Of a stretch of 39,554 nucleotides of DNA, positions 10,399 through 39,554 are shown in pieces. Both the position numbers and the translations under genes were made by a program. Position 1 is the stretch's first letter, and each line of letters starts with the position of its first letter. The stretch is from Aestuariivirgaceae bacterium (GTDB lineage Bacteria; Pseudomonadota; Alphaproteobacteria; Rhizobiales; Aestuariivirgaceae). The stretch spans positions 1 to 39,554 of the forward strand of contig JANQIR010000200.1 in NCBI GenBank assembly GCA_028282065.1, in the 5' to 3' direction. Below the pieces are notes generated by a model that saw only the letters and a program-made list of their open reading frames with translations, did no database searches and had not been told where the DNA came from.

Positions 10399-10404
10399 GT
10401 GGTC

Positions 10405-10435: not shown

Positions 10436-10462
10436 CAAGATCGCAAACCATACTGAACGAAC

Positions 10463-11674: not shown

Positions 11675-12423
11675 GCCTGACCGACCAGGCGGGCACCCTC
11701 GCCGGCCAGCCGCTGTATCAGCACATCAAGCAGCATATCCTGAGCCAGATCCAATCCGGTGATTGGCCGCCCGGCACACGGGTGCCTTCGGAAAACGAAC
11801 TGGTCGAGACCTTCGGCGTATCGCGCATGACGGCAAATCGTGCATTGCGCGAACTGGCCCATGAAGGCGTGCTCTCACGCGTGCCCGGTGTCGGCACTTT
11901 TGTTGCCGAAAGGGCAAGGCGTACCAGCCTGATCGAGATTGCCAATATCGCCGAGGAAATTGCAGGCAGGGGCAATCTGCATGAAACCGAAGTCCATGCG
12001 CTCGAAGAGGTGCATGCGACAGAAGCCCAGGCCGAACAGTTCGAGCGCGAACCCGGCAGCAGACTGTTCCACATCGTTCTGGTGCATTTCGAAAACGGCC
12101 TGCCCGTGCAGTTGGAAGACCGCTATGTCAATCCGGATGTCGCACCCCACTTCCTCGATCAGGACTACCTGACGACAACTCCGACCGCCTACCTGATCTC
12201 CACCGTTCCGGCCGACGAACTGGAACACACGGTTGAGGCGATCAACCCGAACAGCCGGCAGCAACGCCTTCTCGGCATAGAAGACGGCGATCCCTGTCTG
12301 GCGCTTTACCGGCGAAGCTGGTCGTCCGGCCAGGTCGTAACGCTTGTCGAACTGACCTATCCAGCCAGCCGCTACTCCCTCTACAGCCGCTACAAGCCGA
12401 AATCCACGCGGCAAACCTCCTGA
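11671..12423 (+). CDS. hutC: HutC-type GntR repressor of histidine utilisation
   Basis: A 250-residue GntR-family regulator of the HutC subfamily. Residues about 14-82 are the winged helix ([40 protein letters not shown], then VPGVGTFVA). Residues about 100-240 are a UTRA ligand-binding domain, which in known HutC proteins binds urocanate. In that family urocanate releases the repressor from DNA. The gene is cotranscribed between hutI and hutU, so it would be autoregulated. Candidate operators lie in the hutF-hutI gap. Confidence 0.93.
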
Positions 12424-12431
12424 TCTAACCA

Positions 12432-15158: not shown

Positions 15159-15197
15159 GGCGTACCTGCATGAATGAAAACCCGCAGACGTCCACCA

Positions 15198-16970
15198 TCA
15201 ATGGCTCTCTCTGGGCACCGGAGCACCGGAACTGCCGACCAGGAAATCGAAGTCGCAGCCGGTATCGGCCTGCATGACATGATCGTGGAAGATCTTGGCA
15301 TAGCCACGCGTCGGCGCCGGGTCCGGCTTCCAGGCCTTTCGGCGAGCTTCCAGTTCCTCGTCGCTGACATGCAAATGAAGCCGTCGCTTGCCGACGTCCA
15401 GCTCGACGATGTCACCGTCCTGCACCAAGGCCAGCGGACCGCCCGCTGCAGCCTCAGGTGCCGTATGCAAGACGACTGTACCATAGGCCGTACCCGACAT
15501 CCGGGCATCAGACACCCGCACCATGTCGGTTACACCCTTCTTGATGAGCTTCTGCGGCAGCGCCATGTTGCCGACCTCGGAGAACCCCGGATACCCTCTG
15601 GGTCCACAGTTCTTCAGCACCATCACGCAGGTCTCGTCGATATCCAGCTTTGGATCGTCGACCCGTTCCTTATAGTGCTCGATGTTCTCGAACACGACCG
15701 CCCGGCCTTTGTGCTTCATGAGTTTCGCCGTCGCCGCCGACGGTTTCAGCACCGCGCCCTGGGGCGCAAGATTGCCGCTCAGCACGACAATGCCACCGGT
15801 CTTCTTGAACGGTTTCTTGAAAGAATGGATGACGTCCCGGCTGTAGCACTTGGCATCCTTGACGTTCGCCCATTGGGTCTTGCCGTTTACCGTCTTGGCC
15901 GACTTGTGCAAGAGGCCGTTCTCCGCCAGCTCCTTCATGACGACCGGCAACCCGCCCGCATAGTAGAAGTCCTCCATCAGGTAGGACCCCGATGGCATCA
16001 AATTGACCAGACAGGGGATGTCACGGCCGAGCACATCCCAGTCATCAAGCTTCAGTTTCACACCCATACGACCGGCAACCGCCAGAAGATGCACCACCGC
16101 GTTTGTCGACCCGCCAATAGCGCCGTTCACCCGCACCGCGTTCTCAAACGCCTTGCGGGTCAGGATCTTCGACATTCTCAGGTCTTCCTCGACCATTTCG
16201 ACAATTCGCCGGCCGGCCATGTGGGCAAGCGCATTGCGCCGTGAGTCGGCAGCCGGAATAGCTGCATTGCTCGGCAGGCCCATCCCAAGGGCCTCGACCA
16301 TCGAGGCCATGGTGGAGGCGGTACCCATGGTCATGCAGTGGCCTACCGAGCGCGACATGCAGGCTTCGGCATCCACCATGTCCTGCAAAGACATCTCGCC
16401 GGCCTTTTCACGCTCCACGAATTTCCACACATGCGTGCCCGATCCGATGGTTTCGGTACCGAAGCGCCCGTTCAGCATTGGCCCACCCGACAGCGCAAGC
16501 GTCGGCAGGTCGCAGGACGCCGCCCCCATGAGCAATGCCGGCGTGGTCTTGTCGCACCCGACCAGCAGAACGACACCGTCCAGAGGATTGGCGCGGATCG
16601 ACTCTTCCACATCCATGGATGCCAGGTTGCGGAACATCATGGTGGTCGGCCGCATGAGGGTCTCACCAAGCGATGTCACGGGAAACTCCAGCGGAAATCC
16701 ACCCGCCTCGTAAACCCCGCGCTTGATCCGTTCGGCCAGCACCCGAAAATGCGCGTTGCAAGGCGTGAGCTCCGACCATGTATTGCAGATGCCGATCACC
16801 GGCCGGCCGTCGAACAGATGATGCGGCAGGCCCTGGTTCTTCATCCAGCTGCGATGGTGAAACCCGTCCATGCCGGGCTTGCCGAACCACTCCGCCGACC
16901 GTCTGACCGCGTTCCTGGCCGGTTGTTTCCGCGCCCGCGACCGGCCCTTGATGAGTGTTTTCTTCGCCAT
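15198..16970 (-). CDS. IlvD/Edd-family sugar-acid dehydratase (pentonate dehydratase type)
   Basis: A 590-residue iron-sulfur dehydratase that removes water from a sugar acid to give a 2-keto-3-deoxy acid. Cluster and active-site motifs are GICNTWSELTPCNAHF, LVGCDKTTPALLMGAAS, ACMSRSVGHCMTMGTAST, GAIGGSTNAVVHLLA and SDARMSGTAYGTVVLH. The long N-terminal arm and the ELTPCNAHFRVLAERIKRG segment resemble L-arabinonate/pentonate dehydratases more than the biosynthetic IlvD. GGGAGG stands just before the ATG. It lies between a DenD-like dehydrogenase and a Gfo/Idh protein on the same strand, supporting a role in sugar-acid catabolism. Pentonate as substrate is inferred. Confidence 0.88.
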   Translation of the reverse strand: MAKKTLIKGRSRARKQPARNAVRRSAEWFGKPGMDGFHHRSWMKNQGLPHHLFDGRPVIGICNTWSELTPCNAHFRVLAERIKRGVYEAGGFPLEFPVTSLGETLMRPTTMMFRNLASMDVEESIRANPLDGVVLLVGCDKTTPALLMGAASCDLPTLALSGGPMLNGRFGTETIGSGTHVWKFVEREKAGEMSLQDMVDAEACMSRSVGHCMTMGTASTMASMVEALGMGLPSNAAIPAADSRRNALAHMAGRRIVEMVEEDLRMSKILTRKAFENAVRVNGAIGGSTNAVVHLLAVAGRMGVKLKLDDWDVLGRDIPCLVNLMPSGSYLMEDFYYAGGLPVVMKELAENGLLHKSAKTVNGKTQWANVKDAKCYSRDVIHSFKKPFKKTGGIVVLSGNLAPQGAVLKPSAATAKLMKHKGRAVVFENIEHYKERVDDPKLDIDETCVMVLKNCGPRGYPGFSEVGNMALPQKLIKKGVTDMVRVSDARMSGTAYGTVVLHTAPEAAAGGPLALVQDGDIVELDVGKRRLHLHVSDEELEARRKAWKPDPAPTRGYAKIFHDHVMQADTGCDFDFLVGSSGAPVPRESH

Positions 16971-16991
16971 TGTTTCCTCCCGGTGGATGGG

Positions 16992-17993
16992 CTATGCGCC
17001 CAGGCCATCCACATAATCTTCAATGTAGTAGCGCACGATTTCGTCGAGGCTATCTTCGATCGGCAAACCCAATTCCAGCGCCCTGTCGAAATAGGTGTCC
17101 AGCGGCCATGTCGCGACGATCTCCTCTATGAACGGATCGGGTTCGATAGAGATCGTCCCGAGCTTGCGGTCGTGCGCGACCCGATGCAGGGCATCGATCA
17201 TGTCCTGCACCGTGACCGTATGGGCCGGCAGGCTGACGGCACGGTCATCGCCCAGTTCGTCGCCATCCACTTCATGCAGCCGGATGATCCCGTCCACGAT
17301 AGCGCGATAGCCCAACAACGGCATCACGGCATCAGGCTTTACGGGAAGCGTATAGTCGATACCGTTGAGCGGCTCCCGGAACACGGCGGACACAAAGGAC
17401 GACGCCGCAAGATTGGGCTTGCCCGGCCGGATGATCACGGTGGGCAAACGTGCCGACCTGCCGTCGAAATACCCTTTGCGGGTGTAGTCATTGACCAGCA
17501 GTTCGCAGATCGCCTTGGTTGCGCCATAGGTCGTCTGCGGCGTTCGCTTGGTCTGATCGCCGACACTGTCCGGCATGCCCGATCCGCCGAACACCGCGAT
17601 GGAGCTGGCGAACACCACGCGCGGTGCACCTTCCCGCGCCCTTACTGCCTCGAACACATTCAGCCCGCCGGTCAGGTTCACCCTGATGGCCATGTCGAAA
17701 TCTTTTTCCCCGCCGCCGGAAACCACAGAGGCCAGATGAAACACGCTGATGTCGTCCCGGTCGATCAGACCCGAAACAGTCCCGGCATCCGAGATATCAC
17801 CGGTCACGGCCCGAACCCTGGCATCATTGCCAAGACCATAGGGCAATATCTCAGGGTGACCGACGTCGAACAGCAGCACTTCATCGACATCGACCGGCGC
17901 GCCGTCCGGGCCCTTGAGCCGGCCGAGATCAAGGATACGGCGAGCAAGCCTGAGGCCGATGAACCCCATGCCGCCGGTGATGACAACCTTCAC
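16992..17993 (-). CDS. denD: DenD-like NAD-dependent epimerase/dehydrogenase (D-erythronate dehydrogenase family)
   Basis: A 333-residue extended SDR. The Rossmann loop is ITGGMGFIGLRLARRIL at the N-terminus, the catalytic YxxxK is in TTYGATKAICELL, and the stretch ARLPTVIIRPGKPNLAASSF followed by REPLNG is typical of DenD proteins, which oxidise D-erythronate at C2. GTG at 17993 was chosen because CGGAGG precedes it by seven bases and the Rossmann motif follows at once. The longer frame from 18029 lacks similarity. It is the first gene of the operon with the dehydratase and the Gfo/Idh protein. denB and denC partners are not seen nearby, so the true substrate may be a different aldonate. Confidence 0.8.
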   Translation of the reverse strand: MKVVITGGMGFIGLRLARRILDLGRLKGPDGAPVDVDEVLLFDVGHPEILPYGLGNDARVRAVTGDISDAGTVSGLIDRDDISVFHLASVVSGGGEKDFDMAIRVNLTGGLNVFEAVRAREGAPRVVFASSIAVFGGSGMPDSVGDQTKRTPQTTYGATKAICELLVNDYTRKGYFDGRSARLPTVIIRPGKPNLAASSFVSAVFREPLNGIDYTLPVKPDAVMPLLGYRAIVDGIIRLHEVDGDELGDDRAVSLPAHTVTVQDMIDALHRVAHDRKLGTISIEPDPFIEEIVATWPLDTYFDRALELGLPIEDSLDEIVRYYIEDYVDGLGA

Positions 17994-18056
17994 AAGCGTT
18001 CCTCCGGACAAACGTGTTTGCAGTGGCACTTTGGTCTCTGGACCCTAGCTACACTT

Positions 18057-18067
18057 ATGTATACGTT
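18057..18067. promoter_or_regulatory. ATGTATACGTT motif in the denD-like/SDR divergent gap, candidate GntR operator
   Basis: ATGTATACGTT contains the palindromic core GTATAC. The identical 11-mer occurs inverted at 20224-20234, ahead of the GntR gene. Both sites lie in divergent gaps of the same cluster, as expected for operators of the local GntR/FCD regulator. Binding is inferred. Confidence 0.55.
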
Positions 18068-18174
18068 GTTGGCAAATCCAAATAGCGCATGGCGGAACCG
18101 GTTCCAGCTAAGAGGACTTATCGTCGCTTCGCGCTCATCACATCAGCTGCACACGCACGTCAGGGAGACCGGTA

Positions 18175-18930
18175 ATGCCAGGCCGCGTTCAGGGAAAAAC
18201 AGCCATCATCACAGCCGCAGGACAGGGCATCGGGCGGGCCAGCGCGCTCGCCCTTGCACGCGAAGGTGCAACCGTCTTTGCAACTGACGTCAACAAGGAA
18301 GCCCTGAAGGACCTCAAGCAGGAATACCGCAAGATCAAGACATTTGCCCTGGACGTCCTGAAACCAAGGCAGATCGAAAGAGCCGTCGAACGGACCGGCC
18401 CGGTCGATATCCTGTTCAACTGTTCCGGCTTCGTGCACCACGGCACCGTGCTCGACTGCGACGACACCGCCTGGGACTTCTCCTTCAACCTCAATGTCAG
18501 GGCGCACTACCGGATGATCCAGGCCTTCCTGCCGGGCATGCTGGAAAAGGGCGGCGGCTCGATCATCAACATGTCGTCCGTTGCGTCCAGCATCAAAGGC
18601 GCGCCGGACCGGTTTGTGTACGGCGCCACCAAGGCAGCAGTGATCGGCATGACCCGGTCGATTGCCATTGACTACATCAAGCAAGGCATAAGGTGTAATG
18701 CCGTGTGCCCGGGAACCATCGACACACCGTCCCTTGCGGATCGGATCTCGGCTCTGGCCGATCAGTTCGGCAGTTATGACAAGGCACGCGAGTACTTCAT
18801 TTCGCGCCAGCCAACCGGCAAGCTTGCCGGCCCGGAGGAAGTCGCCTCTCTGGTCGTATTCCTCGGCAGCGATGAATCCTCGTTCGTCACCGGGCAAAAC
18901 ATGATCGTCGATGGCGGCTGGTCGATCTAG
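18175..18930 (+). CDS. SDR-family dehydrogenase (BDH2/2-keto-3-deoxy-L-fuconate dehydrogenase type)
   Basis: A 251-residue SDR. The cofactor loop is TAAGQGIGRASALA, with an aspartate (ATDVNKEAL) after beta-2 suggesting NAD preference. The catalytic serine lies in INMSSVASS and the YxxxK motif in YGATKAAV; the tail is VTGQNMIVDGGWSI. The overall pattern resembles DHRS6/BDH2 and bacterial 2-keto-3-deoxy-L-fuconate dehydrogenases. Beside an IlvD/Edd dehydratase, the second fits well: it would oxidise the dehydratase product. GGGAG lies seven bases before the ATG. It diverges from the DenD-like gene and its stop overlaps the convergent IMDH-like gene. Confidence 0.85.
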   Translation: MPGRVQGKTAIITAAGQGIGRASALALAREGATVFATDVNKEALKDLKQEYRKIKTFALDVLKPRQIERAVERTGPVDILFNCSGFVHHGTVLDCDDTAWDFSFNLNVRAHYRMIQAFLPGMLEKGGGSIINMSSVASSIKGAPDRFVYGATKAAVIGMTRSIAIDYIKQGIRCNAVCPGTIDTPSLADRISALADQFGSYDKAREYFISRQPTGKLAGPEEVASLVVFLGSDESSFVTGQNMIVDGGWSI

Positions 18931-20042
18931 CGTCGGAACCCCAACCCTTTTAGGTTGTCCAAAACACGTCCGGCGATTTCCGTAAGGCCCGCGTCCCCGC
19001 CGACCTCGCACGGCTTCAGGTCGCCTGGCGCGAAGGCATCACGCACCGCAGCATCCAGAAGCCGTCCAGCTTCGGCTAGCTTATCGCTGTTGTAACGTTC
19101 ACCCAGCCAATCGAGCATCATCGCGCCAGACAGGAACATTGCCGTGGGATTGGCCCTGCCCGTGCCGATGATGTCCGGAGCGGTGCCGTGGCATGGCTGA
19201 AACAGCGCATGCTTCATACCGATATCCGCAGAAGGCGCCATGCCCATGCCCCCCATCAGGGCCGCTCCTGCGTCCGACAGGATGTCACCGAACATATTCT
19301 CCGTCACCAGGACATCGAAGTCCCATGGGTTTCGCAACATGGCCAGGGCCGTCGCATCGACATAACGGTGATCCGTGGCAATGCCGGGAAACCCTTCGGC
19401 ACGTTCATCGAAGATCTTCCGGAAGAAGGCAAAACTGCCGAACACGTTCGCCTTGTCGACACAGGTCAGCTTTCCCGGCGTTCCCAGCCGCTCGCACCGG
19501 CTGCGCGTATAGGCAAAGGCAAAATCGAACAGCCGCTCCGATGCCTTGCGGGTTATGACCATGGTTTCGCGCGCCTCGTCGTCACCGGTCATGTCCGTCT
19601 TGCCACGAGAAGCGAACAGACCTTCCGTCGATTCCCGTATCAGCACGAAATCCACAGACCGGGCTTTCGGGTCCGACAGCGGCACCGGAAAACCCGGAAA
19701 CGTCTTGACCGGACGGACACCGGCAAACAGCTCGAAAATCTCGCGCAGATCTATCTGAGGCGCGATTTCCCGGCCGTCCGGATAGCGGATATGCGGCAGC
19801 CCCATGGCACCCAAAACCATCACATCAGCCACTTCGGCCCGCTTCACCACGTCATCGGGCAAGGCCGCGCCGGTTTCGGCATAGACAGTCGCACCTGCTT
19901 CAAGCATCTCATAGTGCAGGGAAAATCCACCAATCCGCCCGGCCAGGACGTCAAACGCCGCAAGGCAAGGCTCAATAACCTCCCGTCCGATCCCATCGCC
20001 AGGCAGGACCGCAACATGAATGCTGTTCGATGAGGACACCAT
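18927..20042 (-). CDS. Isocitrate/isopropylmalate dehydrogenase-family beta-decarboxylating dehydrogenase
   Basis: A 371-residue hydroxyacid dehydrogenase. Family motifs are VAVLPGDGIGREVIEP, the substrate helix IDLREIFELFAGVRPVKTF, the VLIRESTEGLFAS loop, DKANVFGSFAFFR and ENMFGDILSDAGAALMGGMGMAPSADIG. The context is not leucine biosynthesis (no leuCD), and paralogues of this kind act on tartrate, homoisocitrate-like or other 3-substituted malates. AGAGG nine bases upstream supports the ATG. It diverges from the GntR gene across an ATGTATACGTT site, so it probably belongs to the sugar-acid regulon. The precise substrate is open. Confidence 0.85.
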   Translation of the reverse strand: MVSSSNSIHVAVLPGDGIGREVIEPCLAAFDVLAGRIGGFSLHYEMLEAGATVYAETGAALPDDVVKRAEVADVMVLGAMGLPHIRYPDGREIAPQIDLREIFELFAGVRPVKTFPGFPVPLSDPKARSVDFVLIRESTEGLFASRGKTDMTGDDEARETMVITRKASERLFDFAFAYTRSRCERLGTPGKLTCVDKANVFGSFAFFRKIFDERAEGFPGIATDHRYVDATALAMLRNPWDFDVLVTENMFGDILSDAGAALMGGMGMAPSADIGMKHALFQPCHGTAPDIIGTGRANPTAMFLSGAMMLDWLGERYNSDKLAEAGRLLDAAVRDAFAPGDLKPCEVGGDAGLTEIAGRVLDNLKGLGFRR

Positions 20043-20223
20043 GGGAATACACCTCTGATTGGTCGTTTCAAGACGGGGCAGTTTGAAACCAGCCTGCGGG
20101 AACAGCCGAACGACTGGCCGGCACGGACAGATGCTCTTGGTTTAGTCCCTGTCGCGGCTTCGCCGCTCCCCGCCTTGTCTGTTGAAGAGCTCCAATAGAC
20201 GCGCTTCACACCTTTGAGTCAAT

Positions 20224-20234
20224 AACGTATACAT
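20224..20234. promoter_or_regulatory. AACGTATACAT motif upstream of the GntR gene, candidate autoregulatory operator
   Basis: This is the exact reverse complement of the 11-mer at 18057-18067. It lies 36 bp before the GntR start and about 180 bp before the divergent IMDH-like gene. The rest of the 227-bp gap shows only a short GCGGC-TTC-GCCGC hairpin (20154-20166) and no gene. Confidence 0.55.
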
Positions 20235-20269
20235 TAATTTCAGGAGAACCCCGACCGGAGGCCCCAACA

Positions 20270-20965
20270 ATGGACCAGGCAAGCAAGCCGCTTTCGGGCG
20301 CGCACAAGGCGTCCGGGCTGGTGGCGCGGGCCTATCACGAGATCAAGGCGCGCATTCTGTCCAACCATTATCCCGGCAACCACACGGCACTGGAAAGCGC
20401 ATTGGCCGAAGACCTGGGCATGAGCCGCACGCCCGTCCGCGAGGCCCTGATACGGCTGGAACGCGAGCGGCTGGTTGAGGTTATCCCAAGACGCGGTATG
20501 CGGGTCCTGCCCGTATCGGCCGGGGAAATGCGCGAAATCTATGAAGTGCTGACCTGCCTTGAGGCACAGGCGGCGTGGCGGCTGGCAACCGCAAATCCCG
20601 ATCATCGCAAGCTGCAACCCATGTTTGATGCGGTGTCGGACATGGAAGCAGCGCTGCGGCATCGTGACCTGAACCGTTGGGCACGCGGTGACGAGGCGTT
20701 TCACACCCACCTCTTGAAACTGGCAGGCAACGAACGGCTCAGCGACCTGGCGGCCACCGTGGCCGACCAGGCTCAACGCACCCGCATGATCACCTTGCAC
20801 CTGCGACCACCGCCAACACGGTCAAACGATGATCATCGTGCACTTCTCAAAGCCATCGCCGCAGGGGACGCGGACTTGGCAAGAGATATCCACACCAGAC
20901 ACCGCCGGCAGGCGATGAATGTGCTGTGCGGCCTGCTTGAACAGCTCGAAAGTGACGGACTGTAA
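20270..20965 (+). CDS. GntR-family regulator, FadR/FCD subfamily
   Basis: A 231-residue regulator. The N-terminal winged helix (about residues 18-85) reads ARAYHEIKARILSNHYPGN, EDLGMSRTPVREALIRLE and VEVIPRRGMRVLPVS. The all-helical FCD domain follows, with the metal/ligand histidines plausibly in DEAFHTHLLKLAGN and the DDHRALLKAIAAGD helix. FCD regulators usually sense carboxylates or sugar acids, which suits the enzymes alongside. GGAGG stands eight bases before the ATG. An ATGTATACGTT-type site lies in its own promoter and in the promoter shared by the DenD-like gene and the SDR. Confidence 0.92.
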   Translation: MDQASKPLSGAHKASGLVARAYHEIKARILSNHYPGNHTALESALAEDLGMSRTPVREALIRLERERLVEVIPRRGMRVLPVSAGEMREIYEVLTCLEAQAAWRLATANPDHRKLQPMFDAVSDMEAALRHRDLNRWARGDEAFHTHLLKLAGNERLSDLAATVADQAQRTRMITLHLRPPPTRSNDDHRALLKAIAAGDADLARDIHTRHRRQAMNVLCGLLEQLESDGL

Positions 20966-26051: not shown

Positions 26052-27311
26052 TTACAACGCCTCATAGCCGCTGACCATCATTCCGTCCAGCGGGATCGCC
26101 GTCTTTTGACCAGCAATCAAATCGGCACAAAGCCGTGCCGCACCGTGACTCATGGTCCATCCCATATGCCCCTGTCCGGTGTTGTACCACAGGTTGCGAT
26201 GCCGCGCCCGGCCGAGGATCGGCGTGCCCTCCGGCGTCATCGGCCTCAGGCCCGCCCAGTAGTCCGGCTGTCCATAGTCGGCGGCATTCGGAAACAGGCT
26301 TTGCGCCACATTCAGCATGTGCCGGAAATCGGACGGCGAGTGGGTGGTGGAATAGCCGGAAAACTCCGCCGTCGCGGTGATCCGCATACGATCGCCCATC
26401 GGGCAATAGGCAACGAGGCTTTCTTCATCGACACCGCCAAGACGTGGGACGTTATTGTAGCCGGCGGTTGGCACGGTCACCGAATATCCCTTGACCGGGT
26501 AGATCGGCAGGCTCACGCCAAGCTGCCTGGCCAGGTGGGGGCTGTAAACGCCAAGCGACAACACATAAAGATCAGCGGTTTCCCGTCCAGCGCCGGTCAC
26601 TACAGCCGTGACCTCATCACCCTGCGTCTCGAAACCGGTAACCTCTGTGCCGAATTTGAAGACAACCCCGCGCGCAGCCAGCCAATCGCCCAACCGCCGG
26701 GTGAACAGCCGGCAATCGCCGCTCTCATCGGTCCTGGCATAAAGCCCTCCGGCAAAACGGTCTTGCGATGGCGCCAGTGCCGGATCGAGTTCGGCGGCAC
26801 CTTTCGCATCGACGACATCGATATCGCAACCATTGCTCATCAAGATGTCAGCCTTGGCCGCTGCGGCATCCAGAGTGGATTGCGAGCGATACAGATATAA
26901 AAGCCCGCCGGTATTACCGTCATACTCCACACCTGTGGCCGCGCAGGTCTCATGGAACACCGATTGCGAATAGTTGCACAAGCGGACCTTGCGCGTCGTA
27001 TTGATCGCCGCACGCCCCGCCGTGCACTGGCGCCAGAACTTCCACATCCAGCTCCAGAATGCGGGATCCAGGCTCGGTTTGAACCTAAGGGCCTGATCAT
27101 CCCGCCAAAGCGACTTCAGCAGGATACCCGGCGCGGCCGGCGATGACCACGCATAGGAGTGCCCCGGGGCGAACAGGCCCGCATTGCCATAGCTGGTAAA
27201 GGACGCCGGCTGTTCCTCCCGGTCGATAACCGTGACGTCATGACCGTCCTTGTGCAGTTCATAGGCTGTCGTGACGCCGACAATCCCGGCGCCCAGTATG
27301 ATGACCTTCAT
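26052..27311 (-). CDS. DadA-like FAD-dependent amino acid dehydrogenase
   Basis: A 419-residue DAO-family flavoprotein. The FAD-binding motif is VIILGAGIVGVTTAYELHKD at the N-terminus, followed by SYGNAGLFAPGHSYAWSSP as in D-amino acid dehydrogenase DadA. Near the C-terminus are WAGLRPMTPEGTPILG and YNTGQGHMGWTMSHGAARL. Enzymes of this family oxidise D-amino acids (or glycine-type amines) to the 2-oxo acid and pass electrons to the respiratory chain. It is the last gene of a cluster with a thiamine-diphosphate decarboxylase and a YihU-like reductase, which suggests that it supplies a 2-oxo acid to the decarboxylase. The amino acid is unknown. Confidence 0.85.
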   Translation of the reverse strand: MKVIILGAGIVGVTTAYELHKDGHDVTVIDREEQPASFTSYGNAGLFAPGHSYAWSSPAAPGILLKSLWRDDQALRFKPSLDPAFWSWMWKFWRQCTAGRAAINTTRKVRLCNYSQSVFHETCAATGVEYDGNTGGLLYLYRSQSTLDAAAAKADILMSNGCDIDVVDAKGAAELDPALAPSQDRFAGGLYARTDESGDCRLFTRRLGDWLAARGVVFKFGTEVTGFETQGDEVTAVVTGAGRETADLYVLSLGVYSPHLARQLGVSLPIYPVKGYSVTVPTAGYNNVPRLGGVDEESLVAYCPMGDRMRITATAEFSGYSTTHSPSDFRHMLNVAQSLFPNAADYGQPDYWAGLRPMTPEGTPILGRARHRNLWYNTGQGHMGWTMSHGAARLCADLIAGQKTAIPLDGMMVSGYEAL

Positions 27312-27357
27312 TGGCCTTATCTCCCGTCAGGCCGGTTACCCGCCAAACGTCGGCCTG

Positions 27358-27930
27358 TCACGGCACCCCGCCGACCGCCTGTTTGAAACGCTGCCGCAGA
27401 AAATGCCCATCACGCGACGGTAATACGCGCTCGTGCTCGCCCGCATTGGCCTTGATCACACCGAGCACAGGTCCTTCCGCCCCCATGACCAGATTGCGCA
27501 ACTCCGTCATCTCGCTTTCGGTTCGCGCGGTAACTGTCCGCTGAAATCCGCAGGCCGATGCTATTTGGGCGAGATCCGGCCGGCCCGCCGTATGGCTCTT
27601 CTGGCCACCGGTCTCCCCATACGCCTCGTTGTCGATTACGACGATGGCGAGGTTTCGCGGCTGCGCCACACCAACGCTGGCAAGTCCGCCAAGCCCCATG
27701 AGCAGTTCGCCATCACCGGTGACGCACAAAACCCGCATGCCGGGTTGCGCCAGCGCCAACCCGAGCGCCATAGGCACCGCACCGCCCATAGCACTCCACA
27801 GATAGAAATTGTCCGCCCGGTCGGCCACTGCCGCGACATCATACGTCGGCGAACCGAGCCCTGTAACGATCAGCACATCACCGCCGCGCTGCGCCAGGAG
27901 AGACTTTACGGCTTTTCGCCGGTCCAGCAT
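27358..27930 (-). CDS. Thiamine-diphosphate-dependent 2-oxoacid decarboxylase, beta subunit (ComE-like)
   Basis: A 190-residue protein corresponding to the C-terminal, cofactor-binding half of ThDP decarboxylases. The ThDP motif begins GDGELLMGLGG and ends NLAIVVIDNEAYGETGGQ. FYLWSAMGGAVPMALGLALA is the preceding core helix. The size equals that of sulfopyruvate decarboxylase beta (ComE). ATG at 27930 was chosen because GGGGTG precedes it and it follows the alpha-subunit stop by 14 bases; the open frame further upstream overlaps that gene. The substrate may be sulfopyruvate, phosphonopyruvate or another 2-oxo acid. Confidence 0.83.
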   Translation of the reverse strand: MLDRRKAVKSLLAQRGGDVLIVTGLGSPTYDVAAVADRADNFYLWSAMGGAVPMALGLALAQPGMRVLCVTGDGELLMGLGGLASVGVAQPRNLAIVVIDNEAYGETGGQKSHTAGRPDLAQIASACGFQRTVTARTESEMTELRNLVMGAEGPVLGVIKANAGEHERVLPSRDGHFLRQRFKQAVGGVP

Positions 27931-27944
27931 GTCCAACACCCCTT

Positions 27945-28475
27945 TCAGAAGATCTTGGAGCCGATAAGGCGCTGCGACAGCAGGACGGCGACCGCACATT
28001 CACTGTCAAAACAGATGCGCGCCGCCGCCTCGACAATCTCCGCCACATCGTCAGGCCGCTCAGCCCGATAGACCAGGAACCCACTTCGCCTGAATGTCTC
28101 TTCACTCGCCTGCCCCATCGGAATCTGCCAGGGATTGAACTCGGCCCATTCCCCGCGCATCGTCACCAGCGTCAGAAAGGGAAATCCGCATACGGACAAA
28201 AGCGAGAACATGTTGACGCAGTTGCCGATACCGCTGGACTGCATCAGCATCACGCCACGCTGACCGCCGAGATCAGCGCCGGCGATCAGGGCAACGCCCT
28301 CTTCCTCCGTTGTCAGCACCGTCGTGATCAGGTCGGATGTCTCGTGACAGGCCTCTATCAGGCTGGAGTGGCCGGCGTCGGGCACATAAGCCACCTGCCT
28401 GATATCCTGCCGCATGAGTGCATCGAACACGCCCTGACGCCAGTCACCGTCCTGCCATTTATAATCTGCGGTCAT
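27945..28475 (-). CDS. Thiamine-diphosphate-dependent 2-oxoacid decarboxylase, alpha subunit (ComD-like)
   Basis: A 176-residue protein matching the N-terminal (Pyr) half of ThDP decarboxylases, the size of ComD. The cofactor-activating glutamate lies in LTTEEEGVALIAGADLGG. GVMLMQSSGIGNCVNMFSLL is the conserved helix. Where sulfopyruvate and phosphonopyruvate decarboxylases as I recall them have an EPEH-type loop before the MG, this protein has EFNPWQIPMGQ, so its substrate may differ. ATG at 28475 overlaps the stop of the reductase gene as ATGA. The beta subunit follows after 14 bases, giving a split two-subunit enzyme. Confidence 0.83.
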   Translation of the reverse strand: MTADYKWQDGDWRQGVFDALMRQDIRQVAYVPDAGHSSLIEACHETSDLITTVLTTEEEGVALIAGADLGGQRGVMLMQSSGIGNCVNMFSLLSVCGFPFLTLVTMRGEWAEFNPWQIPMGQASEETFRRSGFLVYRAERPDDVAEIVEAAARICFDSECAVAVLLSQRLIGSKIF

Positions 28476-29386
28476 TGTTGTGACGCATCCGGCAAACGCA
28501 CCTTTGGCAGTCCCGCCCGTGCGCACCAGTGGTCGAGAAGTGCGGAGAAATCTTTCAGCCCGAACTCGCCGCTTCGCGCCAGGGACAGGGCTTCGCGCGC
28601 CACGGCGGCCATCGGCATCGGCACCCGCCCGGCATTGGCCGCCTCCACAACAAGACTTAGATCCTTATGTGCCAGGTCGATCGTGAAGCCCGGCTCGATA
28701 TCGCCGGTCAGCACCTTGGTGGCGTAGTTGACCTTCAGCTGCCCGTTGGTCGCCGTCGTTCCGTGAATGACATCAAGCGTCTTGTCGAGGTCCAGACCGA
28801 ATGCCGCCGCCAGGCTCAAGGCTTCGGCATTCATCTGACACGATGCAATCGCCAGAAAGTTGTTGATCAGTTTGGTTCGGATACCTGCCCCGACCGGACC
28901 GCAGTGGTAGATCGCCGTGCCCATCGCTTCCAGCATCGGTTTCACAACGGCAAACTGAGCATCGCCGGCACCAACCATGAACAGGCTCTCGCCGGCATCC
29001 GCATGACTGGCCAGCCGACCGACGGGCGCATCGACAAGGATCATGTCTTTCGCCTTAAGATGCGTGGCAAGCTCGTCGGTGGTCAACGGATCGATAGTGC
29101 TCATATCCATGACCAGCGTGCCCGGCTGCGCATTGGCGGCAATTCCATCGGGCCCCATGATCGTTGCCGTAACGTCCGGCGATCCGGGCAGCATCGTCAC
29201 GATAATCTTGCACTCTTTCGCAACCTGCGCCACGGAACCACCGTTTTCGGCGCCAAGCGCCACAAGCGCTTCGACCGGCTGATTGCGGACATCATGCACG
29301 CTCAGGCTGAAGCCCTTGCGCTGCAGATTGGACGCCATGGGCTGGCCCATGCGGCCCAACCCGATAAATCCCACTTTGCCTGCCAT
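28472..29386 (-). CDS. YihU-like beta-hydroxyacid dehydrogenase (3-HIBDH family) with GR substrate loop
   Basis: A 304-residue NAD(P)-dependent dehydrogenase or reductase. The Rossmann motif is FIGLGRMGQPMASNL, the catalytic Lys172 is in TKLINNF, and the C-terminal helices carry IDLAHKDLSLVVEAAN. In most relatives the substrate loop reads DAPVSGG and binds a carboxylate. Here it is DAPVGRLAS (residues 119-127), like the GRTS loop of the E. coli sulfolactaldehyde reductase YihU, which it resembles over its whole length. This suggests a sulfonated aldehyde or acid as substrate. It is the first gene of a four-gene cluster, with GAGG before the start. Reduction of the decarboxylase product is inferred. 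Confidence 0.85.
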   Translation of the reverse strand: MAGKVGFIGLGRMGQPMASNLQRKGFSLSVHDVRNQPVEALVALGAENGGSVAQVAKECKIIVTMLPGSPDVTATIMGPDGIAANAQPGTLVMDMSTIDPLTTDELATHLKAKDMILVDAPVGRLASHADAGESLFMVGAGDAQFAVVKPMLEAMGTAIYHCGPVGAGIRTKLINNFLAIASCQMNAEALSLAAAFGLDLDKTLDVIHGTTATNGQLKVNYATKVLTGDIEPGFTIDLAHKDLSLVVEAANAGRVPMPMAAVAREALSLARSGEFGLKDFSALLDHWCARAGLPKVRLPDASQQ

Positions 29387-29558: not shown

Positions 29559-30899
29559 TCAATCGCTGTCTGGACGCATCTGGAACAGCCGGTCGGACAG
29601 TTCCTCGACACGCGGAACCGGCTTGCCGGCCAGGTCCGCCAGCCTTTCCAGCCGCTTTGTGATCGCCGCGGTATCTATCGGCGGAAACTTGTGATCGACA
29701 TAGGCCGGATTGGCTGGCGAACGGCTGGACAACGCACTGAACGACTTTTCCAAGGCGCGCGCCCCTGCGGCCACCTTGGCAACGGCTGCAGAAAGTCCTG
29801 CCGCTCCGGGCACCTTGAGGCCGGCAAGATCATCGGCAATCCAGTCAGCACTCAGTTTACCGTCATGGCTGGCGATGAGCGCACCCAACCGCACCGAGAG
29901 ATCCTCCTGCTGGCGTTCCATGAGTTCCGGACGCTCCAGCAGCGACAGAACGTCTTCATCCGTACAGGCAATGGCACTCACTGCCTGCGGTTGACGGATT
30001 TCGTAAGGTCCGCCGTCCACCGGTGTGTAGGCGATGGGAATCCGGCCCAGCAGGGCCGACTCGATGGCCGTCGTGCAGCCATTGTGGATCATTGCACCCG
30101 CACCAAGCAGCCAGGGCACCAGATCGCTATCATAGCGCACCGAGACATTCTCAAGCCCCGCGGCCGCCTCACGCCAGCCTTCCGGCGACTCCGAAGGGTG
30201 AGGCCGCACGATGATCTTGCGGTCTGCAAATCGCTCGGAAAGTTTCGGCAACAGCCCGCAAAGGGCACGAAAGATCGCATAGCGATGCTCCAGATAGCCG
30301 ATCGGATGGCGGGCCTTCGTTGCCAGCGCGGCAAGTTCGCCCCGCGTGCGCTCTGCGCCCGGGTCGCCGGAAAGTGCATAGTTCAACCAGCCAAAATTGG
30401 AGTTTACGAGAATGAAATCGCCAAGCTCGCGCTTCAGTTCTTCAGCCCGCGGCCGGTACAGCGCCAGAAAGGCAGGCGACAGCAAATCGGCGCGCGGGTT
30501 TCCGGCGGCAACGACCTCCACGTCAAGGGCTGCAGCCCGTTCACGCAGAACATCCGCATGAGCTTCGCCCCAGGCATAGAACCTATCCACATGTTTCAGC
30601 GTTGCGCAGTTCACACGGCGTTGCAGATAGGTCGGACCGTCAACCCAGACGAGACCTTCTTCATCCCAGGCAACGACGGCATGCCCAAGTTTGCGCAACA
30701 ACGCCAAAATACGCGCCCGACCCTTGTCGATGTTATGAGACAGATAGATGCCCGGCGGCAGCCTGTGAATCCGGTTGTTCAGCAACTGCCGGTTTCCAAG
30801 GCACACATTCATGCCCCGCGCCACGGCGAACAAGGCCAGCAGCAATTTGCCGTCCAGTTCGCGGGCCGCCGTTTCGACCGGGAGATATAACGTCGTCAT
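29559..30899 (-). CDS. Surface carbohydrate biosynthesis protein (capsule/CDP-glycerol transferase-like fold)
   Basis: A 446-residue cytoplasmic protein starting MTTLYLPVETAARELDGKL, typical of the surface carbohydrate biosynthesis family. Two GT-B-like halves are visible. The second carries IVRPHPSESPEGW (about residue 240) and MIHNGCTTAIESALLGRIPIAY, motifs shared with capsule and CDP-glycerol:glycerophosphate transferases. The reaction and acceptor are unknown. The C-terminal 100 residues are alanine- and leucine-rich helices without a recognised domain. It diverges from putA and has no carbohydrate neighbours on its own strand. No clear ribosome-binding site is seen. The flanking gaps (29387-29558 and 30900-31046) hold nothing I can identify. 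Confidence 0.72.
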   Translation of the reverse strand: MTTLYLPVETAARELDGKLLLALFAVARGMNVCLGNRQLLNNRIHRLPPGIYLSHNIDKGRARILALLRKLGHAVVAWDEEGLVWVDGPTYLQRRVNCATLKHVDRFYAWGEAHADVLRERAAALDVEVVAAGNPRADLLSPAFLALYRPRAEELKRELGDFILVNSNFGWLNYALSGDPGAERTRGELAALATKARHPIGYLEHRYAIFRALCGLLPKLSERFADRKIIVRPHPSESPEGWREAAAGLENVSVRYDSDLVPWLLGAGAMIHNGCTTAIESALLGRIPIAYTPVDGGPYEIRQPQAVSAIACTDEDVLSLLERPELMERQQEDLSVRLGALIASHDGKLSADWIADDLAGLKVPGAAGLSAAVAKVAAGARALEKSFSALSSRSPANPAYVDHKFPPIDTAAITKRLERLADLAGKPVPRVEELSDRLFQMRPDSD

Positions 30900-34841: not shown

Positions 34842-35933
34842 ATGTCTTATGTAGGTGATCCGTTCTTGCACGACATCTTTATCTCCTACAGCCATGGAGA
34901 TGTGGATGGCCACGGAAATGCACGTCTGCAACAATGGTCGGAAAGTTTCGCATTGGAGTTGGAAGCAGAGTTAAAGGCGTTCCCTGACATTGGCGCCGGC
35001 ATCAGCGTTTTTCTGGACCAGCACTACCGGCATGGCAGCGGGGTCGATCCGATGGATCCGCTCGATCCCCAACTCAAAAAGAAGATCACAGGCTCGGCAA
35101 TTCTTGCGGTTTTGATGTCACCTCACTACTTGACATCCCGCTGGTGCGGCGATGAGCGCGACTGGTGGTTTGAAGCGCAGGCGCAGCATGAACTGCCAGC
35201 GGAAGGCAGGGTAAGCGTTGCACGAATCTGGCCGACGGCCGACGCCTGGCCGGACAGCCTCGCCGATCACAAGGGCAACCAGCTGGTTGGATATCACTTC
35301 TTCGACAGGGCCAGAGCCGAGACCCGCCCACAGCCCTTCGGCTGGCCGAAGGTCGACCGTGAAACCGGAAACCCGTTTCGCGACGCCGTTCTCAACATGG
35401 TGGGAGATCTGCGCGTCAAACTACTGGCCCTGCACGAGGAGCTGGAGGACCGCAAACGGCGGGCAGAGAACATGAAACGGCTGTCCGCCACAGATGGCCA
35501 GATCATCTACCTTCACGGCCGGCAATCCCAGGAAGAAAAATGGAACCAGATGAACGAATTCCTCGCACAGGAGGGATTTGTGGTCGGCAATGTCGGTCCT
35601 GAACCGATGGAAAGCGATCCGCGGCTGATCCGGCAGTCGCAAAACCTGCGGGTTCAGACAATGAGCGGATGCGACGCAATCTTCCTGGTCGGCGCCGAGG
35701 ACGAACGTGAACTGGCCGCGGATCTGATGGTGGTCGGCCGGTTGGACCGGCATGCCGCGGTGGCCCTGTCGAACAAGCTCTTGCCATGCGCCGTGCTGGA
35801 CACCGCCGGCGCCATCAATGTGAACAACGATTGGCAGCGCAAAGCCGCGGCGCTGGACATAGAGTGGTTTGACGCCAGTACCGAACCATGGCTGCCCGGC
35901 GTGCAGACATGGCTCCAGGAAATCGCTGAATGA
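34842..35933 (+). CDS. TIR-domain protein with unassigned C-terminal domain, putative effector of an nSTAND NTPase module
   Basis: A 363-residue soluble protein. Residues about 9-190 form a TIR domain: the first strand and box 1 as HDIFISYSHGD, an ISVFLDQHY strand, and ILAVLMSPHYLTSRWCGDERDW, where Glu105 matches the catalytic glutamate of NAD-cleaving TIRs. A charged helix (about 185-215) links to residues 219-363. These begin IIYLHGRQSQEEKWNQMNEF and include GCDAIFLVGAEDERE, an alpha/beta pattern that might be a second, degenerate TIR/flavodoxin-like fold. I do not recognise this part. The stop overlaps the NTPase start as ATGA, so the two proteins are coupled. An effector role in a conflict system is inferred. 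The ATG has no strong ribosome-binding site. Confidence 0.85.
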   Translation: MSYVGDPFLHDIFISYSHGDVDGHGNARLQQWSESFALELEAELKAFPDIGAGISVFLDQHYRHGSGVDPMDPLDPQLKKKITGSAILAVLMSPHYLTSRWCGDERDWWFEAQAQHELPAEGRVSVARIWPTADAWPDSLADHKGNQLVGYHFFDRARAETRPQPFGWPKVDRETGNPFRDAVLNMVGDLRVKLLALHEELEDRKRRAENMKRLSATDGQIIYLHGRQSQEEKWNQMNEFLAQEGFVVGNVGPEPMESDPRLIRQSQNLRVQTMSGCDAIFLVGAEDERELAADLMVVGRLDRHAAVALSNKLLPCAVLDTAGAINVNNDWQRKAAALDIEWFDASTEPWLPGVQTWLQEIAE

Positions 35934-38900
35934 CGGCCGATTCCGCAACGTCCCTGGACGCGCTGTTTGACGTCAGCCTGCCCGACGCGCCCTATCCGGG
36001 ACTTCGCCCGTTTGAAAAGAACGAATGGCCGGTCTTCTTTGGTCGCGAAACCATCACCGGCGACGTCATCGAACGGCTGATCGACCATCAATTCGTCGCA
36101 GCGCACGGCGATTCGGGATGCGGCAAGAGCTCCCTTGTGCGCGCAGGCGTTATGCCCCGCCTGGAGCGTGATCATGCCAGAGGCGGCGTGACCTGGCGAA
36201 CCTGCAGCATGCTGCCGCGCAACGCGCCAATGCGCAACCTCGCCGAAGCACTGGCCCAACTGGCTGGCGATGGTGATGGTGATACCGCTACCGAAATTCG
36301 GCGCATTCTCAATCTGGGCGCCATTGCGGGCCCTGACCTTGCACAACGCATCCGCAGGGACGACCGGGACTATGTTTGCGTGCTGATCGATCAGTTCGAG
36401 GAGATCTTCGCGTTTGCAGACGCCGGTCATTCCAACGAGGCGAACCAGTTTATCGAGGTGCTCACCGGCCTGCAGCGCAACCCGCAACCGGGCATACACG
36501 TCATTTTGACCATGCGTTCGGAATTTCTCGGCGCCTGCGCACGGTTCAAAAGCCTGGCCGAAACCATTAACGAGAGTCAGTTCCTCCTGCCCAGGATGGA
36601 CAAGCCGGCGCTCATGCGCGCGGTTCGCGAGCCCGCCAGACTCTTCGGCGGACGGGTCGAGCGCGAACTGGCTGAACGCATCATTGCCGATGCAGGGCAG
36701 GGGCAAGACCAGCTGCCGCTCATGCAGCATGCGATGATGCTGCTGTATCAACGCAAGAAAATGTCGGGACCGTCCGGTCGCAAGGGCTGGATCCTGTCAG
36801 CACAGGATCTTGCCGGCACAGGCGGGGTCGCCCGGCTGCTGTCCGACCACGCCGATGACGTGTTCGGCACCATTGTCCGGCAGGCCAAGACCGAAACCGC
36901 ACGCACAGAACTTTCTGCGATCGTCGAGCGGGCATTCAAGGCACTCACCGACATCAACGCGGAGGGCCACGCCGTGCGCCGGCCGCAAAAGATCAGTGAA
37001 CTTATGGCCGTGACCGGTGCCAGTTATGAAGACCTCATGCTGGTCTTCGAGCCCATGTGCGCCGACGGTGTGTCTTTCATCAAGATTTACGGCACGCCGC
37101 CATTTGGCGAGAACGAACTCGTCGATATTTCGCACGAAGCACTGATCCGGTGCTGGTCCAGGATTGCAGACGAACAGACCGGTTGGTTGCAGCAGGAATT
37201 CCGCGACGGTTTGATCTGGCAGTCGCTGCTCTTACAGGCGGACAATTTCGCCGACGACCGAAAACAGTATCTGTCGCCGATGGTCACCCGGGAACGGGAA
37301 CGCTGGATTCGCGACAAGAACCGAAACTGGGCGAAGCGCTACCAAGGCACAGGACGTACGGTGGACGGCTGGGAGCGCGTCCAGTCGCTACTTCAGACAA
37401 GCAGGACAAAGTCGCGCATATGGGGAGCCCTGGCCCTCGCCGCGGTCGTCATCATCGGCGTCGCAGTGGTGGCCCTGGTTGTGTCGCGCTGGCAGACGGC
37501 CGAACAGGAAAGGCTTGCGTCCGAATTGCGTGCCGTACTGGCCCAGGAACAGGCGCAACGCGAACGCGCCGAGAGCAAGGAGGCAGCAGCGCTCAAAGCA
37601 CAGGCGGAAGCCAACAGGCAGCGCAAGATCGCAGAATTCGCCAAGGACCTTGCCGAAAAGAGAACACAAGAACTTCAGGCCACGTTGAAGGAACTGAGTT
37701 CTTCGGAACAGGCACGCAAGACGGCCGACGCGAACTACAAGGTTGCACAGAGTACAAACCTTCAGTTGCGGTCCCGTCTGCTGAGCGAAAAGGCTGTCGA
37801 GGCGAACTCCGGCGGAGATCACGGCTCGGCCCTGGCCTATACGCTCTGGCCGCTAAAGGGTGATAGGGACTTTCCATATATACCCCAGGCCGAAGCGGCG
37901 GCCTACCAGGCCCTGTACGGATTACGCGAACGTCTCGTCATCAATAGCGACGTACCGAGCCGCGTACCGGCGGCACAGGCCATCTACAGCCACAACGGCA
38001 GAACGATTGCAACGGTCAGTGGCAACTCAATCCTGGAGTTCTGGGATGCCAAGACAGGCCGGCCGGCCAGAGACTCCATTCAGATCGATGGCCTCATGCT
38101 CGCTGCGTCATACAGTGCAAACGGATCACGGATACTGATCCGCTTCCGCAACTGGGTATCCGTCGCCGAGGCTGCTGATGGAATAATCGTCTCATTGATC
38201 GCGTCCAAGGAACAAATCGCATCAGCCGCAATCAGTCCGGACGGCCGGCGGGTTATCATCGGTTACCCAAGCAGCGCCGCGCGCATTTGGGATGCCGACA
38301 ACCGCAAGGTCTTGTTCGAATTTACCGGACACAAGGCCAGTGTGACGGCCGTGGCGTTCAGCCCGGACGGCAGCCGCGTGGCGAGCGGCTCTGTGGACGG
38401 GACGGTGCTCATCTGGGATGCTTCGACCGGAAAGATATTGTCCGAACTCGAAGGGCACACCAACGCCGTTTCTTCGATTGACTTCAGTCCGGACGGCTCG
38501 CGTGTCGCCACGTCGTCTTTTGACAGGACGGTGCGCGTGTGGGAATTGCAGGGCGTGATCGACTCCTACATCGTGCTGCGCGGCCACAAGGATCGTGTCC
38601 GTTCCGCACGCTTCAGCCCGGATGGCCGGCGTGTCGTGACGGCTTCGAACGATGGGACGGCACGTGTCTGGAACGCCAGCACCGGGGCCTTGGGGGTCAC
38701 ACTGGCCGGTCACGAAGATGACGTCACATCCGCTGAGTTCAGCCCGAACATGCGCAATATCGTGACCGCATCCATCGACGGCACAACCCGTGTTTGGGCG
38801 ACATCACCCGCATTGAAACAAGTCAGGGGATACACCTTTGCGCAAGACATACGGGCGGCATTCGCTCCGGACTTGCAACAACAGGCCGTCGCACCGGAGA

Positions 38901-39554
38901 TCGCCAAACCACTCACCGGTTTTGCCGCGGTTTCGGCAGATGGCAGTGAGACGGTACGCGTCACCTCGAATGGCGAGAAGACCTTAAGCTCACTTTGGAA
39001 TTGGTCGTCCGGCACGGCAGCCGGACCGTTTGACCTGCCTGACGGCGCAATTCCACGCAACGCCGGCGTAATGGGTGGCAAGCCGGTGGTCATCTATTCC
39101 ATCTATGGTGAGCCGGCCGAACGCAAGACTGGCGCCGCCATCGGCAGCACCCGGGTAGAGTTCCAGACGGTGAACGGCCAGAGCCCGAATTCGGTGGCAC
39201 TGACGCCCGATGCGAAACGTGTCGCCCTGACATTCCTGGAAGCAGGGCGCATCGACGTCTTCGAACTGGCAGACGGGGCCGCCACCAAACTGGCGTCCTT
39301 GCTGTTGCCTTCAGACAAAGACCGGCCATGGACCGTGGCGTTCAATCAGTCAGGAACGCAGCTCGCCGGTCTGTCCGCCACAGGCAAGATGTTCCGGCAC
39401 GACATTCCCGGTCCATCCGAAGCAACTGCCGCCGAGTTCCCCGTCGACGTAACGCAATCTGCTCACCCGGACGGTGGGATTGGCGACATTCTGGACATCC
39501 GTCCGTTAAGCGATGGCAGGATCCACGCGCTGACCGTGACCATGGTGGCGCCGG
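35930..39554 (+). CDS. nSTAND-type P-loop NTPase with TM segment, coiled coil and WD40 repeats (3' truncated by window end)
   Basis: An open frame of at least 1208 codons that leaves the window without a stop. Residues 21-40 ([20 protein letters not shown]) are the entry typical of nSTAND1 NTPases. Walker A is GDSGCGKSS (60-68), Walker B VLIDQFEE (151-158), a sensor arginine lies in ILTMRSEF (192-199), and the [12 protein letters not shown] motif is near 400. A transmembrane helix follows (about 497-519), then an Ala/Glu/Arg-rich coiled coil (520-635) and WD40 repeats, four of them canonical (800-965) with degenerate ones before. The rest is beta-rich and may be a second propeller. It overlaps the TIR gene by ATGA. 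By family it is a signal-transducing STAND switch; the WD40 part probably senses, and TIR activation is inferred. Confidence 0.9.
38327..38830 (+). repeat. Four consecutive WD40 repeats inside the nSTAND NTPase
   Basis: GH dipeptides at residues 800, 842, 885 and 927 begin units of 42, 43 and 42 residues with the pattern GH-x-V-FSPDG-R-V-TAS-DGT-RVW. More diverged units with FWD or IWD ends lie upstream from about residue 670. The unit-to-unit divergence is moderate, so these are established blades and not a fresh tandem expansion. Confidence 0.88.

What the first reader, a model, noticed from the sequence alone, without database searches (positions are those of the whole stretch)
26052..29386. 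Putative amino acid to alcohol pathway with a sulfonate-type reductase
Gene order YihU-like reductase, ComD-like alpha, ComE-like beta, DadA-like flavoprotein gives a logical sequence: oxidise an amino acid, decarboxylate the 2-oxo acid, reduce the aldehyde. The reductase has GR in place of the carboxylate-binding SGG, as in sulfolactaldehyde reductase. With D-cysteate as input this would give sulfopyruvate, sulfoacetaldehyde and isethionate. The decarboxylase loop EFNPWQIPMG differs from the usual EPEH loop, so a different sulfonate or another substrate is possible.
Basis: partly seen in the sequence, partly recalled or inferred. Interest (0 to 1): 0.62.

Follow-up and report, generated by a model that had tools for sequence, protein, structure and literature searches.

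The report
Amino-acid-to-alcohol enzyme operon, substrate unknown

Summary
The minus strand carries a tight operon: YihU-like beta-hydroxyacid dehydrogenase (29386-28472), a two-subunit ThDP decarboxylase (28475-27945 and 27930-27358) and DadA-type D-amino acid dehydrogenase (27311-26052). The GR-for-SGG change and the EFNPWQIPMG loop are real, and both are conserved clade-wide.

The pathway logic gains support. A sister genus keeps decarboxylase and DadA, adds a Rid imine deaminase, and has an aldo/keto reductase instead of the window's reductase. Across 297 genomes of the order, the window-type reductase and the decarboxylase alpha subunit co-occur in 21 of the 24 reductase carriers, sometimes unlinked, and the pairing appears in about five separate places of the decarboxylase tree.

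The sulfonate reading is not supported. No enzyme reaches the curated sulfopyruvate-decarboxylase or sulfolactaldehyde-reductase cut-off. None of 102 loci has taurine/Xsc genes within 8.5 kb. The decarboxylase subfamily sits among varied, mostly CoA-, carboxylate- or aldehyde-oxidation genes. The organism's taurine/Xsc cluster is elsewhere. PEP mutase was not found, so phosphonate biosynthesis is unlikely.

Best reading: an Ehrlich-type amino acid to aldehyde to alcohol operon with unknown substrate. A weak Xsc co-occurrence keeps sulfonate open at about 0.15.

The parts
28472..29386 (-). beta-hydroxyacid dehydrogenase/reductase, 304 aa, 'GRL' clade (YihU-like)
   Evidence: PF03446+PF14833; best solved relative 6sm7 sulfolactaldehyde reductase (226 bits); NF012005 282.9 bits, cut-off 348 not reached
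29012..29020 (-). GRL codons (residues 123-125) of the PVGRLxxHA motif, replacing the SGG of ordinary beta-HADs
   Evidence: GRL kept in all orthologs of 52% identity or more; all more distant beta-HADs in the alignment (YihU apart) have SGG or AGG
27945..28475 (-). ThDP decarboxylase alpha subunit (ComD/RhiE-like, N-terminal half), 176 aa; ATGA overlap with the reductase stop
   Evidence: TIGR03845 105.8 bits, cut-off 147.95 not reached
28113..28142 (-). EFNPWQIPMG loop of the alpha subunit
   Evidence: EFNPWQ, M120 and G121 invariant in 7 relatives
27358..27930 (-). ThDP decarboxylase beta subunit (ComE/RhiF-like, C-terminal ThDP-binding half), 190 aa
   Evidence: PF02775; TIGR03846 126.5 bits (cut-off 221.5), TIGR03297 118.9 (cut-off 312.5); nearest solved chain RhiF 9iz3_B, 66 bits
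27628..27717 (-). ThDP motif GDG(x26)N in the beta subunit
   Evidence: read directly from the sequence
26052..27311 (-). DadA-type FAD-dependent D-amino acid dehydrogenase, 419 aa
   Evidence: NF001933 443.6 bits, cut-off 383 reached; 36% identical to E. coli DadA, 67% to the sister-genus DadA

Best explanation
The operon encodes an Ehrlich-type route. DadA oxidises an amino acid (most likely a D-amino acid) to an imine that hydrolyses to a 2-oxo acid. The heteromeric ThDP decarboxylase removes CO2 and releases an aldehyde. The GRL-clade beta-HAD reduces the aldehyde to an alcohol, probably with NADH. The net effect would be nitrogen and electron recovery from an amino acid, with the carbon skeleton leaving as a one-carbon-shorter alcohol. 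Shown here: gene content, order, conserved cofactor motifs, recurrent pairing of reductase and decarboxylase, and a Rid protein beside DadA in sister genomes. Inferred: the order of the reactions, the direction of the last step, D-stereochemistry and cofactor. Not determined: the substrate; a non-sulfonated amino acid is judged more likely than a sulfonated one.
For: Translational coupling and short gaps. Five of six sister-genus genomes have alpha-beta-Rid-DadA with a divergent aldo/keto reductase in place of the window's reductase, i.e. an unrelated enzyme for the same step. In Pseudomonas aeruginosa DadA releases iminoalanine that the neighbouring Rid protein DadY deaminates (PMC9714295). 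The GRL reductase lies beside the decarboxylase in G145, G179, f20/g29 genomes, Bosea, Methylobacterium and Paracoccus. 21 of 24 reductase genomes also carry the alpha subunit (Fisher p 6e-15; genus level with both in one genome 9 of 11 against 18 of 112, p 1e-5), in seven of them on other contigs. Reductase-paired decarboxylases fall in about five places of the decarboxylase tree. Three other loci have a different beta-HAD after the beta subunit.
Against: DadA is linked to the decarboxylase only in the window's genus and one sister genus, so it could be a local addition. The reductase may run as an alcohol dehydrogenase. No transporter or regulator adjoins the operon in the window to hint at a substrate. 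No activity data exist. Species are not independent, so the Fisher values overstate significance.
Confidence: 0.55

Rival explanations
1. Sulfonate route as first proposed: D-cysteate to sulfopyruvate (DadA), to sulfoacetaldehyde (alpha/beta), to isethionate (reductase).
For: The reductase's nearest solved relative is the sulfolactaldehyde reductase YihU and it shares the GR arginine. The decarboxylase halves score best or second best among NCBIfam models with the sulfopyruvate decarboxylase models. Genomes with the reductase more often carry Xsc (11 of 24 against 64 of 273, p 0.018; 9 of 12 outside one genus). The organism has a taurine cluster with Xsc.
Against: All sulfonate-enzyme cut-offs are missed. 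No Xsc, Tpa or TSUP exporter within 8.5 kb of the alpha subunit in 102 loci. The Ser of YihU's NNYMS stretch is Ala in the window's NNFLA (its role in sulfonate binding is recalled, not read). Sulfoacetaldehyde is already a substrate of Xsc in this organism, so reducing it would be wasteful. Ten of the twelve f20/g29 reductase genomes lack Xsc. No paper on D-cysteate with D-amino acid dehydrogenase was found in the held library.
Confidence: 0.15
2. The same three-step logic on a carboxylated amino acid, for instance D-glutamate or D-aspartate analogues, with the 2-oxo acid being a C4-C6 dicarboxylate (a sub-case of the best explanation).
For: Relatives of the decarboxylase sit beside acyl-CoA dehydrogenase and CoA-transferase (23 of 102 loci each), MaoC (16), aldehyde dehydrogenase (10), MmgE/PrpD, aconitase, tripartite tricarboxylate transporters and CitE lyase.
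Against: These neighbours belong to other branches of the decarboxylase tree. The window's reductase lacks the SGG motif that binds carboxylates in other beta-HADs (that role is from general knowledge).
Confidence: 0.2
3. Decarboxylase plus reductase form a self-contained module and DadA is the organism's general D-amino acid dehydrogenase that happens to be co-transcribed.
For: Reductase-decarboxylase pairs occur without DadA in all other lineages examined. The genome holds no other DadA-like protein above 28% identity over its length, and DadA passes the DadA subfamily cut-off.
Against: DadA is kept next to the decarboxylase across two genera with different reductases, together with a Rid protein in one. 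No alanine racemase gene adjoins it, unlike E. coli dadAX.
Confidence: 0.2
4. Phosphonate route: phosphonopyruvate to phosphonoacetaldehyde to 2-hydroxyethylphosphonate, perhaps decorating the neighbouring exopolysaccharide.
For: RhiEF, the closest solved heteromeric decarboxylase by beta subunit, is a phosphonopyruvate decarboxylase (PMC12141560). Polysaccharide export genes lie downstream of DadA on the same strand in the window and in the sister genus.
Against: Phosphonopyruvate decarboxylase cut-off missed. No PEP mutase over the cut-off in the genome (97 against 319.6 bits), whereas the same search finds one (414 bits) in G051, where a ComD-like decarboxylase gene lies beside it. The genome is about 89% complete, so absence is not final.
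Confidence: 0.04
5. Carboligation like glyoxylate carboligase plus tartronate semialdehyde reductase, fed by amino acid oxidation.
For: Same pairing of a ThDP enzyme with a beta-HAD reductase (general knowledge of the Gcl-GlxR pair).
Against: The alpha subunit keeps glutamates in TEEEG where decarboxylases have the catalytic Glu, which glyoxylate carboligase lacks (general knowledge; sequence). The reductase lacks SGG.
Confidence: 0.06

Closest known systems
ComDE sulfopyruvate decarboxylase (coenzyme M biosynthesis)
   Same: Two separate subunits with the same domain split; best NCBIfam model for the alpha subunit, second best for the beta subunit
   Different: 105.8/147.95 and 126.5/221.5 bits, below the curated cut-offs; no taurine/Xsc genes around the subfamily
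RhiEF phosphonopyruvate decarboxylase (rhizocticin), PDB 9iz3
   Same: Heteromeric ThDP decarboxylase; the beta subunit is the nearest solved chain by sequence (66 bits)
   Different: No PEP mutase over the cut-off in the genome; phosphonopyruvate decarboxylase cut-off missed
YihU 3-sulfolactaldehyde reductase, PDB 6sm7
   Same: beta-HAD fold, PVGR in place of PVSGG, NADH-type Asp after the glycine-rich loop
   Different: 43-44% identical to annotated yihU genes on plasmids; motif is GRLxxHA, not GRTSANA; below the NF012005 cut-off; no sulfoglycolysis genes seen in the annotated part of the window
DadA and the dadAX(Y) alanine system
   Same: DadA subfamily cut-off reached; 36% identical to E. 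coli DadA; Rid partner in the sister genus as in Pseudomonas DadY
   Different: No alanine racemase in the operon; linked instead to a 2-oxo acid decarboxylase and aldehyde reductase
LumKL, two-subunit ThDP heterocycle decarboxylase of riboflavin catabolism (PMC12746152)
   Same: Another catabolic two-subunit ThDP decarboxylase, showing that such pairs are not confined to sulfonates and phosphonates
   Different: Acts on a quinoxaline carboxylate in a different gene cluster; sequence relation to the window not tested

Membership tests
Sulfopyruvate decarboxylase ComDE | Curated equivalog scores TIGR03845 (alpha) and TIGR03846 (beta) | tested here: not met
   105.8 against 147.95 and 126.5 against 221.5 bits
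Sulfopyruvate decarboxylase ComDE | Two-subunit ThDP decarboxylase architecture | tested here: met
   alpha = N-terminal half, beta = C-terminal ThDP half
Sulfopyruvate decarboxylase ComDE | Sulfonate-metabolism neighbourhood | tested here: not met
   0 of 102 loci with Xsc, Tpa or TSUP within 8.5 kb
Sulfopyruvate decarboxylase ComDE | Activity on sulfopyruvate | not testable with these tools
   needs an enzyme assay
Sulfolactaldehyde reductase YihU | Curated equivalog score NF012005 | tested here: not met
   282.9 against 348 bits
Sulfolactaldehyde reductase YihU | Arg of the PVGR motif | tested here: met
Sulfolactaldehyde reductase YihU | Full YihU motif (GRTSANA, Ser in NNYMS) | tested here: not met
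   window has GRLASHA and NNFLA
D-amino acid dehydrogenase DadA | Curated subfamily score NF001933 | tested here: met
   443.6 against 383 bits
D-amino acid dehydrogenase DadA | Oxidation of D-amino acids | not testable with these tools
   needs an enzyme assay
Phosphonopyruvate decarboxylase | Curated score TIGR03297 | tested here: not met
   beta 118.9, alpha 50, cut-off 312.5; the model is for the fused protein, so separate halves are at a disadvantage
Phosphonopyruvate decarboxylase | PEP mutase in the genome | tested here: not met
   best 97.4 against 319.6 bits, genome about 89% complete; positive in G051

The most novel reading that the evidence does not exclude
A widespread, uncharacterised branch of two-subunit ThDP decarboxylases (EFNPWQ type) works with a distinct GRL-type reductase as an aldehyde-forming and aldehyde-reducing module. 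In the window it is fed by a D-amino acid dehydrogenase, giving a D-amino-acid Ehrlich pathway not described for bacteria as far as the few searches of the held literature show.
Probability: 0.4. Interest if true: 0.55.

Novelty: new variant of a known kind. Interest (0 to 1): 0.4.

Why it matters
Two-subunit ThDP decarboxylases have been called rare and assigned only to coenzyme M and rhizocticin synthesis and, recently, riboflavin catabolism (PMC12746152). The window and its sister genus give a compact version in which all steps could be assayed together. The result also warns against naming these genes sulfopyruvate decarboxylase from homology.

Tried and rejected
(1) Sulfonate-gene neighbourhood: seeds for Xsc, Tpa and TSUP against 102 loci found none. 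(2) Phosphonate biosynthesis through PEP mutase: not found in the genome. (3) Pot-type transporter and Doe/Eut-like genes in G145 as a guide to substrate: mostly below cut-offs, not conclusive. (4) Histidine-utilisation genes near the pair in the window, in g29 loci and (hutC) in Variovorax: window distance is 12 kb or more with unrelated genes between, so treated as coincidence. (5) Thiamine transporter and thiamine diphosphokinase beside the sister-genus cluster: may only supply ThDP. (6) Promoter and terminator scans and inverted repeats: no more sites than in shuffles, nothing usable. (7) Literature: the YihU structure paper is not held; nothing found on D-cysteate with D-amino acid dehydrogenase. 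(9) Structure prediction was not used, because folds would not separate the candidate substrates and coordinates are not readable here.
Full report
What is there. On the minus strand four genes follow each other with almost no gaps: reductase 29386-28472, decarboxylase alpha 28475-27945 (start overlaps the reductase stop as ATGA), beta 27930-27358, DadA 27311-26052. The reductase has both beta-HAD domains, a GxGxxG loop followed by Asp (suggesting NADH) and the KLINN stretch with the catalytic Lys of the superfamily. The beta subunit has the ThDP motif GDG(x26)N. The alpha subunit keeps TEEEG where decarboxylases carry the catalytic glutamate. The motif readings are from the sequence and general knowledge; domains are. 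The upstream gene 29559-30899 (surface carbohydrate family) lies 172 bases away and the downstream polysaccharide export lipoprotein starts 113 bases after DadA; neither is part of the chemistry.

Names by curated models. Only DadA reaches a curated cut-off (443.6 against 383). The decarboxylase halves and the reductase resemble sulfopyruvate decarboxylase and sulfolactaldehyde reductase best or nearly best, but all stay well under those equivalog cut-offs. The beta subunit is about as close to the phosphonopyruvate model as to the sulfopyruvate model.

Relatives in the family. Of 69 genomes of the same family, five of six in one genus (g3) have the alpha subunit at 70-73% identity; a further genus has it at about 51%. 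In g3 the order is alpha, beta, a 117-118 aa Rid-family protein, DadA (65-67% identical to the window's), with a divergently transcribed aldo/keto reductase where the window has its beta-HAD. A Rid protein next to DadA has a studied parallel: in Pseudomonas aeruginosa DadA releases iminoalanine and DadY deaminates it (PMC9714295). Two unrelated NAD(P)H reductase families at the same place support an aldehyde-reduction step. Upstream of the g3 cluster lie a thiamine ABC transporter and a thiamine diphosphokinase, which would fit ThDP supply. Polysaccharide export genes lie downstream in both genera.

The wider decarboxylase branch. Among 102 loci examined (many from Bradyrhizobium, so not independent), neighbours within 8.5 kb were acyl-CoA dehydrogenase and CoA transferase (23 each), an RND pump (19), MaoC (16), aldehyde dehydrogenase (10), the window-type reductase (9 including the window), DadA (7 including the window) and Rid (6). 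L027 and L038 are the same record, so DadA counts six genomes and Rid five. None had Xsc, taurine-pyruvate aminotransferase or the TSUP exporter. Annotated plasmid loci add MmgE/PrpD, aconitase, tripartite tricarboxylate transporters and 5-oxoprolinase-like genes. This branch therefore probably serves several oxo acids and is not a sulfonate marker.

The reductase clade. Orthologs at 52% identity or more all keep [VI]GRL and nearly always a following HA; paralogs and more distant beta-HADs have SGG or AGG. Among 297 genomes of the order, 24 have this reductase, 53 have the alpha subunit, and 21 have both (p 6e-15; by genus with both in one genome, 9 of 11 against 18 of 112, p 1e-5). In seven of the 21 the two genes are on different contigs. 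On a tree of the joined subunits, reductase-paired members fall in about five places, and the window groups with g3 (support 0.98). These facts argue that the two enzymes act in one pathway. Relatedness of the genomes makes the p-values optimistic.

Sulfonate or not. For: the shared arginine with YihU, and a modest co-occurrence of the reductase with Xsc (11 of 24 against 64 of 273, p 0.018; 9 of 12 once the large g29 genus is removed, while g29 itself has 2 of 12). The organism has a classic taurine cluster (Xsc at 969 bits by model; aminotransferase, regulator, alanine dehydrogenase, acetate kinase, exporter and Pta recognised by reading the neighbouring frames) on another contig. Against: the missed cut-offs, the empty neighbourhoods, the different motif context, and the oddity of reducing a compound that Xsc can use. 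I put the D-cysteate to isethionate reading at about 0.15. The phosphonate reading is lower still, since PEP mutase was not found in the genome.

Conclusion. An operon for conversion of an amino acid to a one-carbon-shorter alcohol by oxidation, ThDP decarboxylation and reduction is the best reading (0.55). The substrate remains open and needs assays.

Noticed in passing
window 34842-35933 and 35930-39554: A TIR-domain protein followed directly by an nSTAND1 NTPase with WD40 repeats that runs off the window; no PADLOC model matches. Possibly an uncatalogued immune-type pair.
   Followed up: partly
window 4895-14123: Histidine-utilisation cluster (HutG, HutH, HutF, HutI, GntR-type regulator, HutU). 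Hut genes also lie a few kb from the reductase-decarboxylase pair in g29 genomes.
   Followed up: partly
window 14127-20965: Sugar-acid catabolism genes: Gfo/Idh-type oxidoreductase, IlvD/Edd dehydratase, D-erythronate dehydrogenase (above cut-off), SDR, isopropylmalate/tartrate dehydrogenase-like protein and a GntR regulator.
   Followed up: no
L164 (G000:C103:1-20000): Taurine-type cluster with Xsc elsewhere in the same genome.
   Followed up: partly
L031:4000-8260: ThiB-ThiP-ThiQ transporter and thiamine diphosphokinase next to the sister-genus decarboxylase cluster.
   Followed up: partly
L170, L172, L168, L169, L109: Recurrent cluster of the same decarboxylase with aldehyde dehydrogenase, DAO-type flavoprotein, SDR, VOC, 5-oxoprolinase-like proteins and an acyl-CoA dehydrogenase/CoA-transferase/MaoC/CitE set in various combinations; looks like an undescribed catabolic pathway.
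   Followed up: partly
G051:C516:3127-4496: PEP mutase over the cut-off (414 bits) beside a ComD-like decarboxylase in a genome of the same family, probably true phosphonate biosynthesis.
   Followed up: no
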